In this document: positions 1,841 to 29,769 of the stretch, piece after piece
How positions within the stretch are numbered: position 1 is the stretch's first letter
Layout: each line of letters opens with the position of its first letter
IMG/VR virus record: IMGVR_UViG_3300009033_000002
Location: 1 to 36,778 of that record
DNA from: a virus
Reading direction: 5' to 3' (one strand)
Length of the DNA stretch: 36,778 nucleotides
The notes under the pieces: generated by a model
What the model saw: the letters and a program-made list of their open reading frames with translations, nothing else
Databases searched by the model: none
What the model was told of the DNA's origin: nothing
Made by a program: the position numbers and the translations under genes

Positions 1841-2112
1841 AGATTAACGGGCAGCCCCGCAACGTCCGTCTCCGTACGGAGGCGATCCGCTATCGCATCC
1901 TCGCCGCGCTTCTGACCGCGAGCATTCTCCCCGAGAAGGCCCTTGTCGAGGTCGTCGGTGGCCCCGACCTGCCGCTCACAGCCCTCGCGGTTTCCAACCA
2001 GGTCAACGCACTCGAGCAGCTGCACCTCGTCCGGACGCGTGAGTTCCACGGCATGCGCCTGGTGGCGATCGTTGCGCCCAATCCGCTCGGGCACCGGAGT
2101 CACGACGCATGA
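1837..2112 (+). CDS. Small winged-helix-like early protein, paralogue of the late protein at 14032
   Basis: The protein is 91 aa, overlapping both neighbours by 4 nt (ATGA). Its central part (RTEAIRYRILAALL ... VVGGPDLPLT ... QVNALEQLHLV) aligns well with the late protein at 14032..14352 (RREVLRWRILQTLN ... AVSGPDMPLT ... EIEYLELRELV). The predicted helix-helix-helix-strand pattern is that of a winged helix. The paralogy is seen directly. The DNA-binding role is inference. Confidence 0.82.
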   Translation: MKINGQPRNVRLRTEAIRYRILAALLTASILPEKALVEVVGGPDLPLTALAVSNQVNALEQLHLVRTREFHGMRLVAIVAPNPLGHRSHDA

Positions 2113-4262
2113 ACACATGGATCGGTTCTGCGGAGCTGGCCGAGATTCTCGGCATCCGCCAACAGAGTGTTTCTCGCCGTGCCACGGCCGAAAATTGCCA
2201 GAGCCGCCGGCGCCAGGGACGTGGCGGAGGCCGCGAGTACCACCTGGCGTCGTTGCCCACGGAATGGCGCCAGCGCATCGCCGCGCACCGCGTTTCGCTT
2301 GCCCGGGAGACGCGCGACCCACAGCTCGAAGCGTACGCCAGGCGCCGGCATATCACCGGGCAGATCGCCGAGCGTGTGGCGCTTCGTGTCGCCGCCCAGG
2401 GACTCGCCAGGCTCGCGCACCTGGACGGTGCAGACCGCGCCCGCGCGGAGGCGAAGCTCTCCATTTTGGAGGCAATCGAGGACTTCACGGCGCACTCTCA
2501 CCTAACGAAAACCGCGGCCTTAACGGCCTTCTGCGCGGCCTACAACGACGGTTCACTCAAGATCGAAGAAGAGGCACGCGAAGTCGTCGAATCCCTCAAT
2601 GCGACCACGGTTTACCGTTGGCGCCGCGAACTCAAGGAACGCGGCGCCGCGGCGCTCGCAGGCTCCTACGGCAACCGCAAGGGCTCCGGCGTCATCGACA
2701 GCCAGGAGGCGCTGCATGACTTCTGCGTCGCGATGCTCACCCAGCATCCGCACACCTCCGGAGCGAACCTGTTCAAAGCCGTCCGTGCCCGGTTTCGATC
2801 CAGCGAGGAGGTTCAACTCCCGAGCAAGCGTGCCGTGCAGCGGTGGCTCGCGACCTTCCGCGACGAAAACGCCGAGCTGATCACGGCCATCGCGAATCCC
2901 GACGGCTGGAAGAACAAGTACATGACGGCCTACGGAAGCGCGGACGAAGACGTCGTGCGGCTCAACCAGCGCTGGGAGGGCGATGCGACGCCCGCCGACG
3001 TGATGCTGCTCGACGGCCGCCACCACATCATGGGCTGGGTCGATATTTTCAGCCGCCGCGGGAAGCTCCTGGTCACGAAGACCAGCACTGCGCAGGCGGT
3101 GGCCACGTCCCTGCGCCGGTCAATCCTCCACTGGGGCGTTCCCGACCAGGTCAAGACCGACAACGGCAGCGACTACAAGTCCAAGCGAATCCGGCGTGTG
3201 TTCGACCAGCTCGGCGTCGAGCACCTGGTCGCCGATCCCTTCAGTGGCTGGCAGAAGCCACACATCGAGCGCTTCTTCCGCACTTTCTCCCACGGCATCG
3301 TGGAATACCTGCCGGGCTACAGCGGCCACAACGTCGCCGAGCGCAAACAGATCGAGGCTCGCAAGAGTTTCGCCGACCGATTGATGAAGAAAAACGAGGT
3401 CATCGAGATCCGCATGACCTCCGCCGAGTTCCAGGACCTGTGCGACCGGTGGGTCGAGGACATATACCACAACGACACGCACGGGAAGCTCGGCGTGTCT
3501 CCGAACGTTAAGGCCGCGGGGCAGCCCGCCCGGCGCATCGAGGACGAGCGCGCGCTCGACATCCTGCTCGCGGACTGCGGCGTGCGCACGGTCACCAAGA
3601 GCGGCATCACAATCGACCGCATCGACTACATCAGCGCCGAGCTTGACTGCGTCGGCGCGAAGGTCCACGTCCTGAAGGACCCGGAGGACCTTGGCCGCAT
3701 CTTCGTCTTCCGCGATGGCGAGTTCCTGTGCATCGCGGAGAACCCCGTTTACGCCGGCATCAGCCGTCGCGAGGTGGCGATCCGCGCGCGCGAACGGCAG
3801 AAACAACGCATCCAAGACGAGCGCCGGCAGCTGCGCGCGGCCGCCCGCAAGGAACGGGTAGTCGACATCGCACAGGAGATTCTTTCGGAGGCCGGGAAGG
3901 CGCGCGAAGGATCAAACATCCACGCGTTCCCGACGCGCGACGAGACCTATACCACACCGGCGCTCGGGGCAGCCAGCGCAGCTGCCGACGCGCGCGATCG
4001 CGCGGGCGCCGAACCCGAGGCGCCCGAGGTGACGCGCCGAGCGCTCGAGACCGTCACCCGAATGATTCGCGAGGAGCAGCTCGAGGACGAGACGGCCGAG
4101 GACCGCTTCCGTCGCTGGATCCGGGTCGACCGGGCGCGTGCAGCCGGCGAGGAGATCAACGACATCGACGCCGCCTTCGCTTCCCGCTACGAGGAAAGCG
4201 CCGAGTTCAAGGGGAGATATTTGATTTACGAGGAGTTCGGAGCCTCGGCCTTCGGGTTGTGA
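2109..4262 (+). CDS. A: MuA-like DDE transposase
   Basis: This enzyme pairs the phage ends and catalyses cleavage and strand transfer during replicative transposition. The protein is 717 aa. Residues 1 to about 55 are a MuA-type winged helix (WIGSAELAEILGIRQQSVSRR). The integrase-like core shows D292 (GDATPADV), D351 (KTDNGSDYKS) and E387 (KPHIERFFRTFS). The D351 to E387 spacing is 35, as in retroviral-type cores, and shorter than in MuA itself. Around 495 to 550 lies the MuA C-terminal beta-barrel-like segment. It is followed by a very basic helix (RARERQKQRIQDERRQLRAAARKERV), which in MuA corresponds to the domain III segment that interacts with B and ClpX. The start overlaps the previous gene by 4 nt. 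Confidence 0.96.
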   Translation: MNTWIGSAELAEILGIRQQSVSRRATAENCQSRRRQGRGGGREYHLASLPTEWRQRIAAHRVSLARETRDPQLEAYARRRHITGQIAERVALRVAAQGLARLAHLDGADRARAEAKLSILEAIEDFTAHSHLTKTAALTAFCAAYNDGSLKIEEEAREVVESLNATTVYRWRRELKERGAAALAGSYGNRKGSGVIDSQEALHDFCVAMLTQHPHTSGANLFKAVRARFRSSEEVQLPSKRAVQRWLATFRDENAELITAIANPDGWKNKYMTAYGSADEDVVRLNQRWEGDATPADVMLLDGRHHIMGWVDIFSRRGKLLVTKTSTAQAVATSLRRSILHWGVPDQVKTDNGSDYKSKRIRRVFDQLGVEHLVADPFSGWQKPHIERFFRTFSHGIVEYLPGYSGHNVAERKQIEARKSFADRLMKKNEVIEIRMTSAEFQDLCDRWVEDIYHNDTHGKLGVSPNVKAAGQPARRIEDERALDILLADCGVRTVTKSGITIDRIDYISAELDCVGAKVHVLKDPEDLGRIFVFRDGEFLCIAENPVYAGISRREVAIRARERQKQRIQDERRQLRAAARKERVVDIAQEILSEAGKAREGSNIHAFPTRDETYTTPALGAASAAADARDRAGAEPEAPEVTRRALETVTRMIREEQLEDETAEDRFRRWIRVDRARAAGEEINDIDAAFASRYEESAEFKGRYLIYEEFGASAFGL

Positions 4263-4335: not shown

Positions 4336-5067
4336 ATGCGCTACAAAATTGTACCCATAAAGAACGTCGCCCGCCTCGCCGAGGCGGGTAATGCACTCAT
4401 CGAGCGTCCGCTCGGGATGCCCGGCATGGGCCTCGTCGACGGGCACACGGGTTACGGCAAGACCACGGCCGTCACATGGTTCGTCACCCGCTGCCACGGC
4501 GTCTTCGTCCGGGCAATGGCCACCAGCTCTCCGCTGAGCCTGCTCGGATCCATTCTTCGCGAGCTCGATGTCGAGCCCCGCGGCAGTTGCGCGGAGATGG
4601 TCGAGCGCATCGTCGGAAAACTCGCCGAATCCAGGCGGCCGCTATTCGTGGACGAGGCCGACTACCTGGTCGAGCAGCGGCGTCTGGTCGACACGCTTCG
4701 CGACATCCACGACCTCGCCACGGTGCCGGTCGTGATGATCGGCATGGCTGGAATCCAGCGCAAGATCGCGGCCCGCGAGCAGCTCTCCGGCCGGATCGCG
4801 CAACGGGTGCAGTTCTACCCGATCGACATGGACGACGCGCGGCTCATGGCGCGCGAACTCTGCGAGGTCGAGGTCGAGGACGACCTGCTCGAGCAGATCC
4901 ACACCAAGGCCGCCGGAAGTACGCGGCTTCTGGTCGTCGGGCTCTCGTCCGTCGAGGATCTGGCGAAGACGCGCCGCAAATCGAAGGTCGGGCTCGCCGA
5001 CTGGCCGCGGGAACGTGACTTCTTCATCGAGCCGGTGCGGCGCAAGGGCCCGAGGAGGGTTGCCTGA
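4336..5067 (+). CDS. B: MuB-like AAA+ ATPase, target DNA activator
   Basis: The protein is 243 aa. It shows a Walker A motif GHTGYGKTT at residues 36 to 44 and a Walker B motif RPLFVDEADYL at about 101 to 111, followed by sensor-type segments (VPVVMIGMAG, and RIAQRVQFYPID near 155). In Mu, B binds target DNA non-specifically as an ATP-dependent filament, delivers it to the transpososome, and provides target immunity. Here it lacks a clear N-terminal helix-turn-helix, so it resembles the shorter AAA version found in D3112-type phages. GGAG lies nine bases upstream of the ATG. Confidence 0.93.
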   Translation: MRYKIVPIKNVARLAEAGNALIERPLGMPGMGLVDGHTGYGKTTAVTWFVTRCHGVFVRAMATSSPLSLLGSILRELDVEPRGSCAEMVERIVGKLAESRRPLFVDEADYLVEQRRLVDTLRDIHDLATVPVVMIGMAGIQRKIAAREQLSGRIAQRVQFYPIDMDDARLMARELCEVEVEDDLLEQIHTKAAGSTRLLVVGLSSVEDLAKTRRKSKVGLADWPRERDFFIEPVRRKGPRRVA

Positions 5068-25745: not shown

Positions 25746-26156
25746 ATGATTGAAGGCGTTTCAATCTCGCTGGGTGGCCGGGACTTCACAGTCCCGGCCC
25801 TCAATTTCAAGGGCATCCGCGCGCGCGAAGAGGACATCGACCGGATCTCGAAGCCAGCCTCCGATGAGAGCGAGGCATTCGGGGCCGATCGGATGGGCGC
25901 CGTTTGTCGGATTGTGCACACGGCACTCGTTCGCAACTATCCGGACGTGACGCTTGAGCAGGTCGAGGACTGGGTGGACCTCAACAACGTCACCTACGTG
26001 ATCGACGCGGTGCTCGGGCAGTCGGGACTCAAGAAGAACGCCGGCGAGGAGGGCTCCGCGCCGGGGGAAGCGCCGAGCCCGTCGACTGGGACGGGCTCTA
26101 CGCCACCCTCGCCATCGACACCGGATGGACCTGGGAGTACATCGACGAGTGCATGA
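25746..26156 (+). CDS. Tail assembly chaperone G
   Basis: The protein is 136 aa. The N-terminal 100 residues (SISLGGRDFTVPALNFKGIRAREEDIDRI ... VRNYPDVTLEQVEDWVDLNNVTYVIDAVLGQSGL) resemble the G-type chaperone that wraps the tape measure during tail assembly. The last 35 residues are low-complexity Ser/Pro/Thr/Gly, as expected for reading past a frameshift site. A -1 shift near 26063..26069 would give the GT fusion. Confidence 0.87.
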   Translation: MIEGVSISLGGRDFTVPALNFKGIRAREEDIDRISKPASDESEAFGADRMGAVCRIVHTALVRNYPDVTLEQVEDWVDLNNVTYVIDAVLGQSGLKKNAGEEGSAPGEAPSPSTGTGSTPPSPSTPDGPGSTSTSA

Positions 26157-26329
26157 CGCTGCCCCGGCTCGCTGCCATGAACCGCGAGTGGCGGCAATGC
26201 CCGCCCGCGCGCGTTCTCATCGCCGCGTATGTCGGGTACAAGCCAAAGCCGAAGGCGCGACGCCTGAAGCGAGGAGAACTGAGCGGTCTGTTGGGCCGGA
26301 TGCGATCGGCAGCGCAGCCGAGGGGTTAG
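26063..26329 (+). CDS. T domain of the GT tail chaperone, made by -1 frameshift
   Basis: In the -1 frame the sequence is open from the slip region to TAG at 26327..26329. It encodes an 86-residue domain: DWDGLYATLAIDTGWTWEYI, then ECMTLPRLAAMNREWRQCPP and VLIAAYVGYKPKPKARR. It has no in-frame start of its own near its beginning. The heptamer G-GGG-GAA (26063..26069), in the G frame, is the likely slippery site. The GT product would be about 194 aa. Lambda G/GT works by the same shift at GGGAAAG. Confidence 0.8.
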   Translation, partial: GGSAEPVDWDGLYATLAIDTGWTWEYIDECMTLPRLAAMNREWRQCPPARVLIAAYVGYKPKPKARRLKRGELSGLLGRMRSAAQPRG

Positions 26330-26634
26330 CCGTGATGCCACCAGGCGTAAAGACGTGCGCCGAGCAGCCAGAAGAATCCGGCCGCGATCCCGAGCGCGCC
26401 AACTATGACGCCGCCGCTTCCGCGGGCGCCGGCGCCGGCCAGCATCACGACGAAGCTGACGAGCATAAGGATTACGGCGGCAACCATTTGCCCCTTGTAG
26501 CGCTTCGAGGTCGCCTGGATGGTCGTCGGGTGCGCTGCCGCTACCGTTTCTCCAAGCGGTGCCCCGCATCCCGGACAGCTGCTCGCCTGGTCGGAGATCT
26601 GTCGTCCGCATTCGGTGCAATTCGTCAGGGCCAT
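26326..26634 (-). CDS. Antisense zinc-ribbon two-TM protein (moron)
   Basis: This leftward gene of 102 aa is the only minus-strand gene in the late region. It encodes a zinc ribbon (C6, C9, C20, C23: CTECGRQ ... CPGCGAPLG) followed by two TM segments at about 50 to 68 and 74 to 93. GGAGGG lies eight bases before the ATG and TATACT about 33 bases before it. Its stop overlaps the convergent T-domain stop. Own promoter, opposite strand and a position between module genes are typical of morons expressed in lysogens. Confidence 0.8.
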   Translation of the reverse strand: MALTNCTECGRQISDQASSCPGCGAPLGETVAAAHPTTIQATSKRYKGQMVAAVILMLVSFVVMLAGAGARGSGGVIVGALGIAAGFFWLLGARLYAWWHHG

Positions 26635-26663
26635 CGCCTGAACCCTCCCGTAAGTGTCTTCGG

Positions 26664-26669
26664 AGTATA
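26664..26669 (-). promoter_or_regulatory. Candidate moron promoter (-10 TATACT)
   Basis: On the minus strand TATACT is followed by a short leader, GGGAGGG and the ATG at 26634. No good -35 is seen at 17 bases. The element lies immediately before, and partly under, the start of the tape-measure gene. Confidence 0.4.
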
Positions 26670-26673
26670 GCCA

Positions 26674-29600
26674 ATGGCCACCGAGATGGAGCTGGCACTC
26701 AAGATCAAGGCGAGCGTCGACCAGGCGACGGCGGCACTGCGCTCGGTCTCGGACCAGCTCAAGGGCATTGGAACTTCGGGCGAGAGTGCCGATACCGGGG
26801 CGGCGTCCGCCTCGGCGGGCCTCGACTCGGTCACCGCCAGCGCGAACGCGGCGGCCGCCGCAGTCGAGAGGGCGAATGCCTCGCTGGGGATGAGTGGGAC
26901 CCGTGGATATGGCGGCCCGAACACGCCGTGGCCGGCCGGGAAGATCGTCCGAGGAGGAACGCCAGAGGCCGAAGCTGAGGACGCCGTTGCTTCCGGCGGC
27001 GGCGCGGCGGCGGGGACGGCCCTCGAGGAGACGAACCGCGCGGTCGCTGACTCCGCGCAACAGGCTACTGCGGCGATCGACTCGGTCGCACTGTCGGCGC
27101 GTGGCGCGGCGGCGATGGAGGCCGAGGCATCCGGAGAGGCGGCGGCGCTTCGCGAACGTTGGGACCGCATTGCCGAGGCGTCCCAAACGGCGACAGCCGC
27201 CGCCAGTGGCGACGCGGTCGCTCTCCAAGCCCTTAAAGACGAGCAGAACGGCGTCCGCAATTCGCTCTCCGCCTATATCGTCGAACAACGCGCGGCAGCA
27301 GTCGCGCAGGAAGAAGGCGCGGCCGCGGCCGGGACAGAAGCCGCTGCAATGGAGGGGCTCAAAATCTCCAGCGGCGGCGCGATGAGAGAGTACAGCGCGC
27401 TGGTCGACGAGATGCTTTCCGGCCGCACCAGAAGGATCCCCGGAACCTTGGCCACGTTGAGCAACCGTCTCGGCCTGATGAAGTATCTGTTCAGCGGCGT
27501 CGGACTTGCGGCCATTGGGACGATCGGCGCGATCGCCGCGGTGGGAATCGAAGCCTACAAGGCGGAAGAGGAGGATGCGGCCTTCAATCGCGCCCTGGAG
27601 AAGACCGGCGGATACCTCGGTGTCACCATCGGCGAGTTCCGCCAGATGGCGAATGAGATCGCCGGCGGCTCCATTTCGATTGGACAGGCACGGGACAGCC
27701 TCCAGGCGGTCGCCGAGACGGGCCGGTTTACTGGCGATGAACTGCGCCAGGTCGGGCTCGGGGCAGCGGCTATGGCGCAGCTGACCGGCGAGAGCATCAA
27801 GAAGGCGGTCGGTGAATTCGCGAAAATTGGCGACAACCCGGAACAGGCCGCGCGTAAGCTCAATTCTCAGCTCCACTTCCTTACTGCCTCCACCTACGAA
27901 CAGATAGCAGCTCTACAACGGGAGGGCGACACCGAGCAGGCGACGCGGGTACTCGTCGAACAGCTTTCCCAGGCTATGGCGCAACGGGCTGACAAGGCGC
28001 ACTCGCAGGAGCACGGGATCCTCGCGCTCCTGCATGCCGAGGCGCATGGCTGGAGCATCATCGGAGAAAAGATCAAGAGCGCTTTCTCCTCTACCACCCC
28101 GCAGGAAGAACTAGACAAGATCGACAAGAAGATCCACGCGACTTTCGAAGAGCTGCAGCGCGTCAAGAAGGCAGGTGGTGCGATCGCGATAGGTCGTGAC
28201 ACTTACGAGACCGCGAGCCAGCTCGAGGCAGCGCTGCATAAGCTCGGCGCACGGCAGGCTGCGCTCTCAAAGCAGATCGTCGGATCGCATGACAGGGCCA
28301 AATCGAAGGCCGCGGTCGATGCGGAGACTCAGGCCGTCATCGAGCAGAGCCATTGGCTGGACAACGAAAAGGCGTCCCTCGACAAAAAGGTCCGCATGGA
28401 GCAGGAGCTCGCCCACCTGGCCAGGGTCCGCGCTGACGCAGAGAAGCTAGCGAACGACTCCCACGCGAGCGCCGCTGACCGCGCGGGCGCGAGAAAGGTG
28501 GTCGAGGGCACCGATTGGTCCAAGCTCCAGCAGGACATCCGTAACAAGTACAGCCAGCACAGCCAGGACATTGTTGCCGTCGATGAACAGACGCTCTCCG
28601 AGCTCGAGGCGCGGGAGAAAGTCTCCTACAACAAACGCTCGGGATTCGAGCTCGATTTCTGGAAGAAGAAGCTGGCCGGGATGCGTGAAGGGACCGCCGA
28701 ATATGCCCAGGTCTATCACCGCGTCGCGGCGTTACAGCAGCAGGTTCAGCAGAAGGAAGAGCAGCAGGCGCGCCAGCACGAACAGAAGATGGCCGAGATT
28801 CGCCAGCTCGACATCGAAAGCGTCCGTTCGGCTGGGCTCTCTCAGATTCAAATTTCCGAGATGATGGTGCGTCATCGCCTATCGATGGGCTTGATCGGTG
28901 GTCGTCAGGAGGTGGCTCAGCTCAAGTCTCTCGAGGACGCGAAGCTCCGCGTCCAGCTCAAGGCCCTGGACGACCAGCTGGCCGCGGCCAAGGGCGACGA
29001 GGTCGAGCGCCGGCGTATCCTGCGCCAGATCCAGCAGGCCGAACAGCAGCATGCCACGACCATTGAGCAGCTGAATGAACGCATGCAGCTCTCCGTGCGC
29101 AAGAAGTGGATCCAGAGTTTCGGGGTTGTCACCAATGCGATCGACCAGTCGGTCAAGGGGATGATCCGCGGCACGCTCACCTGGCGAAACGCCGAGCGGA
29201 ACTTCCTGCAGTCGATGACCGGCGAGTTCATCGACATGGCCATGAAGCGCGTCTCGCACTGGGTGGCCACGCAGATCGCACTGACGACCGTCACCGCGGC
29301 CGGCGAGAGCTCGCGCGCGGCGATCGAGGATGCGGCCAACAAGCAGAGCCTGCTGAAGACGGCGGCGACCGTCACGAAGAAGATCCTCATGAAGATGTGG
29401 GACGTCATGGCGAGCGTCTACTCGGCGATCGCGAGCATCCCCTACGTCGGCCCGTTCCTCGCGCCGGTCATGGCGATCGCGGCTGGCGCATTGGTCGCCT
29501 CCTGGGCCGGGCGCGTGGCCTCCGCCGCCGGCGGCTGGTGGGAGATCCCGAACGACCAGATGGCGATGGTCCATAAGCAGGAGATGGTGCTCCCGGCCCG

Positions 29601-29769
29601 CGAGGCCGAGGGCATCCGCAACCTGGTGCGCGGCGGCGGTAATGGCGGCAGCAACACCTACCACATCCATGCGATGGATGCCGAGAGCTTCCGGGACTAC
29701 GCCCGACAGAACCGCGACATCCTGGCCGAGGCGCTCGGGATGGCGCACCGTGACGGTGCCTTCGCATGA
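26674..29769 (+). CDS. Tape measure protein
   Basis: The protein is 1031 aa. It sets tail length; about 1.5 angstrom per residue suggests a tail near 150 nm. The N-terminus (ELALKIKASVDQATAALRSVSDQLKGI) and the block LSGRTRRIPGTLATLSNRLGLMKYLFSG followed by a hydrophobic segment are typical of lambda-type tape measures. Long coiled coils fill 300 to 800. A C-terminal hydrophobic stretch (IASIPYVGPFLAPVMAIAAGALVASWAG) could insert into the membrane during DNA entry. Codon use in the first half is less GC-biased than nearby. Confidence 0.93.
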   Translation: MATEMELALKIKASVDQATAALRSVSDQLKGIGTSGESADTGAASASAGLDSVTASANAAAAAVERANASLGMSGTRGYGGPNTPWPAGKIVRGGTPEAEAEDAVASGGGAAAGTALEETNRAVADSAQQATAAIDSVALSARGAAAMEAEASGEAAALRERWDRIAEASQTATAAASGDAVALQALKDEQNGVRNSLSAYIVEQRAAAVAQEEGAAAAGTEAAAMEGLKISSGGAMREYSALVDEMLSGRTRRIPGTLATLSNRLGLMKYLFSGVGLAAIGTIGAIAAVGIEAYKAEEEDAAFNRALEKTGGYLGVTIGEFRQMANEIAGGSISIGQARDSLQAVAETGRFTGDELRQVGLGAAAMAQLTGESIKKAVGEFAKIGDNPEQAARKLNSQLHFLTASTYEQIAALQREGDTEQATRVLVEQLSQAMAQRADKAHSQEHGILALLHAEAHGWSIIGEKIKSAFSSTTPQEELDKIDKKIHATFEELQRVKKAGGAIAIGRDTYETASQLEAALHKLGARQAALSKQIVGSHDRAKSKAAVDAETQAVIEQSHWLDNEKASLDKKVRMEQELAHLARVRADAEKLANDSHASAADRAGARKVVEGTDWSKLQQDIRNKYSQHSQDIVAVDEQTLSELEAREKVSYNKRSGFELDFWKKKLAGMREGTAEYAQVYHRVAALQQQVQQKEEQQARQHEQKMAEIRQLDIESVRSAGLSQIQISEMMVRHRLSMGLIGGRQEVAQLKSLEDAKLRVQLKALDDQLAAAKGDEVERRRILRQIQQAEQQHATTIEQLNERMQLSVRKKWIQSFGVVTNAIDQSVKGMIRGTLTWRNAERNFLQSMTGEFIDMAMKRVSHWVATQIALTTVTAAGESSRAAIEDAANKQSLLKTAATVTKKILMKMWDVMASVYSAIASIPYVGPFLAPVMAIAAGALVASWAGRVASAAGGWWEIPNDQMAMVHKQEMVLPAREAEGIRNLVRGGGNGGSNTYHIHAMDAESFRDYARQNRDILAEALGMAHRDGAFA

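What the first reader, a model, noticed from the sequence alone, without database searches (positions are those of the whole stretch)
26326..26634. Antisense zinc-ribbon/two-TM moron in the tail module
A leftward gene with its own ribosome-binding site and -10 element is wedged between chaperone and tape-measure genes that are normally adjacent. It would be transcribed in the lysogen and is convergent with late transcription. Its zinc-ribbon plus TM layout suggests a membrane sensor or defence function.
Basis: partly seen in the sequence, partly recalled or inferred. Interest (0 to 1): 0.75.

Follow-up and report, generated by a model that had tools for sequence, protein, structure and literature searches.

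The report
Antisense zinc-ribbon membrane moron, polymorphic tail
A Mu-like phage carries, back to front inside its tail genes, a small membrane-protein gene whose zinc-binding head is shared with hundreds of viral contigs while its membrane tail is swapped between relatives, and which most likely protects a bacterium carrying the dormant phage from rival phages.

Summary
ORF 26326-26634(-) encodes a 102-aa protein: a C4 zinc ribbon (PF13240 above cutoff) plus two TM helices. It has a good RBS and starts 39 bp from the divergent tape-measure (TMP) start. It is a real gene: two close relatives and a distant phage lineage (L120/L121) keep an antisense zinc-ribbon gene at this junction.

In the close relatives only the 25-residue ribbon head is kept; the C-terminus is replaced by a non-homologous one (one TM plus ectodomain). 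An independent lineage (L039/L041, ~97% identical flanks) shows the same head-kept, tail-swapped geometry.

Zinc-ribbon-headed membrane proteins recur beside TMP (11 of 42 dereplicated clusters) and directly downstream of prophage repressors. Most sense-strand copies carry their own terminator (13/17, against 2% of random segments); antisense copies do not (0/6). This looks like a prophage-expressed moron at the site of the HK97 gp15 superinfection-exclusion moron, to which it is not homologous.

Superinfection exclusion at DNA entry is the best-supported function but is inferred. The -10 hexamer exists without a -35. Nobody appears to have described the family in the papers searched. New variant of a known kind.

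The parts
26326..26634 (-). Zinc-ribbon two-TM protein gene, 102 aa (the moron)
   Evidence: same-site antisense homologues in L029, L030, L120, L121
26554..26634 (-). Zinc-ribbon head, residues 1-27, Cys 6/9/20/23 (CxxC-x10-CxxC); the part conserved with L029/L030
   Evidence: PF13240 26.5 bits (cutoff 25); motif unique in the window
26428..26499 (-). Predicted TM helix 1 (about residues 46-69)
   Evidence: hydropathy; AF2 helix 39-69
26350..26418 (-). Predicted TM helix 2 (about residues 73-95); C-terminus ends WWHHG, W98/W99 invariant in the 12-member subfamily
   Evidence: hydropathy; AF2 helix 73-101; alignment A4
26643..26649 (-). Ribosome-binding site GGGAGGG, 8 nt before the ATG
   Evidence: sequence, (conserved in L029/L030)
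26664..26669 (-). TATACT hexamer, possible -10; no -35; lies in the TMP RBS-to-ATG spacer
25746..26156 (+). Tail assembly chaperone (first ORF)
   Evidence: PHROG 7947 (2e-13, no function given) and weak tail PHROG 2115; position
26153..26329 (+). Small second chaperone-type ORF, overlaps the moron stop by 4 bp (convergent)
   Evidence: PHROG 8018; conserved in L029/L030
26674..29769 (+). Tape-measure protein, divergent from the moron (39-bp gap)
   Evidence: PHROG 24, 6e-50
25746..27750 (.). Approximate cassette (chaperone + moron + TMP N-terminus) shared 99-100% by L029 and L030 although L029 equals the window from about 27870 on

Best explanation
The gene is a moron: a small inner-membrane protein made by the prophage, with a cytoplasmic zinc ribbon and a two-helix membrane hairpin, sitting at the chaperone/TMP junction where HK97 keeps its gp15 exclusion moron. 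Most likely mechanism: in the lysogen it sits in the inner membrane and interferes with the DNA-entry step of incoming siphophages (the TMP-dependent channel through the inner membrane), giving superinfection exclusion. The ribbon head is a constant part, perhaps a cytoplasmic docking or zinc-stabilised anchor. The membrane or ectodomain tail is the variable, specificity-giving part and is replaced as a cassette between related phages, the head and the flanking tail genes providing homology. Antisense orientation does here what a terminator does for sense-strand copies: it keeps prophage transcription of the moron from running into TMP. Shown: gene, domains, conservation of the antisense arrangement, head-kept tail-swap, junction recurrence, terminators on sense copies, homologues in repressor operons. 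Inferred: lysogen expression of this copy, membrane topology, exclusion.
For: (1) Same-site antisense zinc-ribbon genes in L029/L030 and in the distant L120/L121: same two-TM subfamily at 40% identity, divergent from a TMP with 43% identity over its first 42 aa, 42-bp gap, independent RBS. (2) Head kept, tail replaced twice independently: window vs L029 and L039 vs L041, flanks about 94-98% identical with divergence starting at about codon 31. (3) Zinc-ribbon genes lie within 107 bp of a TMP gene in 11 of 42 dereplicated clusters; binomial p 6e-7 if 4% is expected, 4e-4 if 8%. (4) 13 of 17 sense-strand copies next to TMP have an intrinsic terminator within 150 nt of the stop, against 42/2040 random segments; antisense copies 0/6. 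HK97 gp15 carries an annotated putative terminator at the same place. (5) Zinc-ribbon genes directly downstream of, and co-oriented with, prophage repressors: L122, L129, L062, L139, L144, and in the cI operon direction in phage D14O, with HTH genes also in L093, L070, L008 and L102. The same ectodomain occurs in TMP-side copies (L039, L048, L105, L059, L088) and repressor-side copies (L062, L093, L008), which argues against a virion role. (6) The junction exchanges whole genes: zinc-ribbon, GDSL esterase or a one-TM protein between Acinetobacter phages with 82-94% identical flanks. (7) HK97 gp15 at this junction is a predicted inner-membrane exclusion protein whose block is escaped with other tail-tube/TMP genes (PMC10883804). 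(8) The phage looks temperate: Mu-type transposase, transposition protein and a leftward repressor-like ORF at 391-981.
Against: No exclusion activity is known for any zinc-ribbon member; PADLOC gives no convincing hit. No two-hexamer promoter or terminator is seen at this copy, so expression is unproven. L039 and L041 have nearly the same TMP but different moron tails, so the tail does not simply track the phage's own TMP. The family also sits at head-tail connector genes (L126, L128) and elsewhere (L002, L125), so the TMP neighbourhood is not obligatory.
Confidence: 0.5

Rival explanations
1. Lysogenic-conversion membrane protein unrelated to exclusion: a prophage-expressed zinc-ribbon protein that alters host envelope or stress physiology. 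The chaperone/TMP junction is only a tolerated insertion site.
For: Zinc-ribbon heads on membrane domains are common in bacterial genomes. Family members sit at several moron sites, not only TMP. A GDSL esterase occupies the same junction in a relative.
Against: Enrichment beside TMP, rapid tail exchange, and precedent of membrane exclusion proteins at this junction and downstream of repressors.
Confidence: 0.27
2. Defence acting late in infection rather than at entry: a Tab-like product that binds a competitor TMP or chaperone and blocks tail assembly.
For: Tab of P. aeruginosa phage JBD26, also a Mu-like phage, is a prophage-expressed moron acting on TMP (PMC10884400). Linkage of the gene to the TMP N-terminus in the L029/L030 cassette.
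Against: The two TM helices put most of the protein in the membrane, while tail assembly is cytoplasmic; in relatives the variable part is an ectodomain (L029, L039), out of reach of cytoplasmic TMP if topology is as predicted.
Confidence: 0.08
3. Regulatory role: leftward transcription through the divergent 39-bp region dampens TMP or chaperone expression, the protein being secondary.
For: Antisense, overlapping control regions of moron and TMP.
Against: Protein-level conservation of the head (9 of 15 changes at third positions) and of the subfamily across phages in sense orientation and in repressor operons.
Confidence: 0.05
4. Chance open frame in GC-rich antisense DNA.
For: The frame is open far beyond the gene (26326-27876).
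Against: Pfam hit, unique ribbon motif, RBS, homologues at the same site in independent contigs.
Confidence: 0.01

Closest known systems
Escherichia phage HK97 gp15 moron (superinfection exclusion)
   Same: Same position, between tail chaperone and TMP genes; small predicted inner-membrane protein; moron inserted in the tail operon.
   Different: HK97 gp15 is 62 aa with one hydrophobic segment, no zinc ribbon, a different PHROG (5031), sense strand with its own terminator. No sequence relation.
Zn_Ribbon_1 (PF13240) headed bacterial and phage membrane proteins (PHROGs 38187, 6586, 10292, unknown function)
   Same: Same ribbon head above the Pfam cutoff, PHROG E-values 5e-7 to 2e-6, same head-plus-TM layout.
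   Different: Those families have no assigned function; the two-TM tail ending WWHH forms a subfamily (A4) with no named Pfam domain.
Tab (tail assembly blocker), P. aeruginosa phage JBD26
   Same: Prophage-expressed moron of a Mu-like phage; action depends on TMP (PMC10884400).
   Different: An 83-residue protein encoded between the terminase genes and acting on virion assembly; a zinc ribbon or TM helices were not looked for in Tab.
SNIPE membrane-bound nuclease
   Same: Membrane protein that meets siphophage TMP at the inner membrane during injection (PMC13190303); a model for how an inner-membrane protein can act there.
   Different: SNIPE is a nuclease with a DUF4041 domain; this 102-aa protein has no nuclease domain.

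Membership tests
Zn_Ribbon_1 (PF13240) | C4 ribbon (CxxC...CxxC) scoring above the gathering cutoff | tested here: met
   26.5 vs 25 bits, residues 6-27
Phage moron | Extra gene between genes that adjoin in a relative | tested here: met
   Brevundimonas phage Polewnik has chaperone-side ORF and TMP overlapping with nothing between; Acinetobacter relatives carry other inserts there
Phage moron | Own promoter | tested here: inconclusive
   Conserved TATACT only, no two-hexamer sigma70 site; host promoter types unknown
Phage moron | Own terminator | tested here: not met
   None after the window copy or 5 other antisense copies; present after 13/17 sense TMP-side copies. Orientation may replace it
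HK97 gp15-type exclusion protein | Position between tail chaperone and TMP genes | tested here: met
HK97 gp15-type exclusion protein | Sequence homology to gp15 | tested here: not met
   gp15 is PHROG 5031 with no ribbon; P0001 does not match PHROG 5031
HK97 gp15-type exclusion protein | Blocks superinfection at DNA entry | not testable with these tools
   needs infection assays
Known anti-phage defence family (PADLOC) | Profile match | tested here: not met
   only chance-level hits, best 0.046 for P0001

The most novel reading that the evidence does not exclude
Zinc-ribbon-headed membrane proteins form one large, polymorphic prophage exclusion system. A constant cytoplasmic ribbon, possibly docking to one conserved host inner-membrane target, carries interchangeable membrane and ectodomain modules that are exchanged at the chaperone/TMP junction and the repressor operon and that block TMP-dependent DNA entry by different competitor phages.
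Probability: 0.3. Interest if true: 0.82.

Novelty: new variant of a known kind. Interest (0 to 1): 0.62.

Why it matters
Morons at the chaperone/TMP junction are known from HK97, but a recurring zinc-ribbon head with exchangeable tails, found at both the TMP junction and repressor operons across unrelated phages, appears undescribed in the papers searched. If these are exclusion proteins, hundreds of 'zinc ribbon domain-containing' phage proteins of unknown function (506 head relatives in IMG/VR) become candidate prophage defences. The natural allele pairs (window/L029, L039/L041) give ready tests of what head and tail each do.

Tried and rejected
Chance ORF: rejected (homologues). Virion structural or assembly role: disfavoured, because the same ectodomain occurs in repressor-side copies. 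Strict co-variation of moron tail with own TMP: suggested by the L029/L030 cassette but not general (L039/L041). Structure search: PDB Foldseek gave nothing at E <= 0.001, only short zinc-finger pieces; PDB sequence profile only generic zinc fingers. PADLOC: nothing. Literature searches joining zinc ribbon with TMP, moron or exclusion found no paper on this. The original HK97 gp15 paper is not held, so I relied on the gene table and on PMC10883804. Host and genome relatives: not available for a virus record. My first phmmer TMP detection missed divergent TMPs; PHROG scans added L074, L085, L107, L120 and L124.

Full report
What is there. The window is an IMG/VR virus record, 67% GC, of a Mu-like transposable phage: Mu-type transposase at 2109-4262, DNA transposition protein at 4336-5067, a leftward repressor-like ORF at 391-981 and a repressor-family gene at 1068, with long tail genes of the DUF2460/DUF2163 type. 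The leftward ORF 26326-26634 lies between the second chaperone-type ORF (26153-26329, convergent, 4-bp overlap) and TMP (26674-29769, divergent, 39-bp gap). Its product is MALTNCTECGRQISDQASSCPGCGAPLG... with a C4 zinc ribbon (PF13240 above cutoff) and two hydrophobic helices.

Is it more than chance. Antisense frames are long in GC-rich DNA (this one is open to 27876), so openness is no evidence. The C4 motif is unique in six frames against 0.04 expected. The RBS GGGAGGG is conserved. Between window and L029 the head shows 15 substitutions in 25 codons, 9 at third positions, with all cysteines kept. The -10 TATACT is conserved but overlaps the TMP RBS-to-ATG spacer, and no -35 or terminator is found; I treat the promoter as unproven.

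Same site in relatives. L029 and L030 carry an antisense gene starting at the same place with the same head, but after about residue 25 the protein is unrelated: one TM then a roughly 90-residue domain, 151 aa in all. L029 and L030 are 99-100% identical over about 25.7-27.7 kb (window coordinates: chaperone, moron, TMP N-terminus), after which L029 switches to 100% identity with the window, so the moron has moved inside a cassette. L120 and L121 are much more distant (adaptor 48% and TMP N-terminus 43% identical, tube and chaperone not recognisable), yet have the same arrangement with the same two-TM subfamily: moron and TMP divergent, 42 bp apart, moron 40% identical (TMP confirmed). The antisense arrangement is therefore maintained over long evolutionary distances.

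A wider family. A scan for the head alone gave 506 relatives in viral contigs. Of the best 80 loci plus the window, dereplicated to 42 protein clusters, 11 have the gene within 107 bp of a TMP gene; with about 50 genes per phage, chance gives about 4%. In most of these the gene is sense-strand and just upstream of TMP (Acinetobacter-type L068-L092 and L116; HK97-like-TMP phages L039, L041, L052, L105; L059/L088; L085); L074 and L107 lie just downstream of TMP. The two-TM subfamily also occurs sense-strand between chaperone and TMP (L124, L127), directly downstream of CI-like repressors (L122, L129), antisense in tail modules (L123, L130) and among head-tail connector genes (L126, L128). The L127 TMP is assigned by position only. 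Other zinc-ribbon proteins lie downstream of repressors in L062, L139, L144 and (two small genes further on) Pseudomonas phage D14O, next to HTH genes in L093, L070, L008 and L102, and antisense in the baseplate region of Klebsiella phage ST405-OXA48phi1.2.

Transcription-unit evidence. An intrinsic terminator follows the stop within 150 nt in 13 of 17 sense-strand copies beside TMP and in 6 of 10 repressor-side copies, against 2.1% of random segments from the same loci; none of six antisense copies has one. HK97 gp15, at the same junction, also has an annotated terminator. A sense-strand moron needs a terminator to keep prophage transcription out of TMP; an antisense one does not. This reading is inference but fits both classes.

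Constant head, exchangeable tail. Besides window/L029, the pair L039/L041 is about 97% identical on both sides and through the first 94 bp of the gene, then differs (158 vs 73 aa), and identity resumes just downstream. In Acinetobacter phages the whole junction gene is exchanged for a GDSL esterase or a one-TM protein with flanks 82-94% identical. One ectodomain type is shared by TMP-side and repressor-side copies, which argues for a role in the lysogen rather than in the virion.

Mechanism. Known exclusion proteins of long-tailed phages act at the inner membrane on DNA entry; HK97 gp15 exclusion is escaped by phages with other tail-tube and TMP genes (PMC10883804), and SNIPE shows that an inner-membrane protein can meet TMP during injection (PMC13190303). 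By position, anatomy and genetic company I judge superinfection exclusion the most likely function (0.5), general lysogenic conversion next (0.27), Tab-like late interference (0.08; PMC10884400) and antisense regulation (0.05) less likely. That it is a real, membrane-located moron I hold at about 0.9, and that it is lysogen-expressed at about 0.75.

Limits. No RNA or phenotype data; the sampled loci are the best-scoring 80 of 506, so the enrichment figure is approximate; the null of 4% is a simple one; ORF calls in loci are mechanical; clusters are by protein, and some share phage ancestry.

Noticed in passing
window 25746-27750 with L029 and L030: A cassette of chaperone, moron and TMP N-terminus is 99-100% identical in L029 and L030, with an abrupt switch of L029 to window identity near 27.75-27.87 kb inside TMP (recent recombination in the tail module).
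   Followed up: yes
L072 4939-5564 vs L034 and L035: The chaperone/TMP junction in Acinetobacter phages exchanges zinc-ribbon, GDSL-esterase and one-TM genes with flanks highly similar: a moron hotspot.
   Followed up: partly
L062, L139, L122, L129, L144, L119 (phage D14O): Zinc-ribbon membrane genes lie downstream of prophage repressors in the same direction, the classic place for lysogen-expressed exclusion genes.
   Followed up: partly
L039, L048, L105, L059, L088, L062, L093, L008: A ~45-aa C-terminal ectodomain (FCExRYKEMNxDRxY..KMRxDYRxKWGRxP) is shared by TMP-side and repressor-side zinc-ribbon proteins; no Pfam family was found for it in L105.
   Followed up: partly
L038 6413-6736 (Pseudomonas phage KT1): The same junction holds a 107-aa protein with a signal-peptide-like start and no zinc ribbon, by eye resembling the C-terminal domain of the zinc-ribbon protein in L020.
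   Followed up: no
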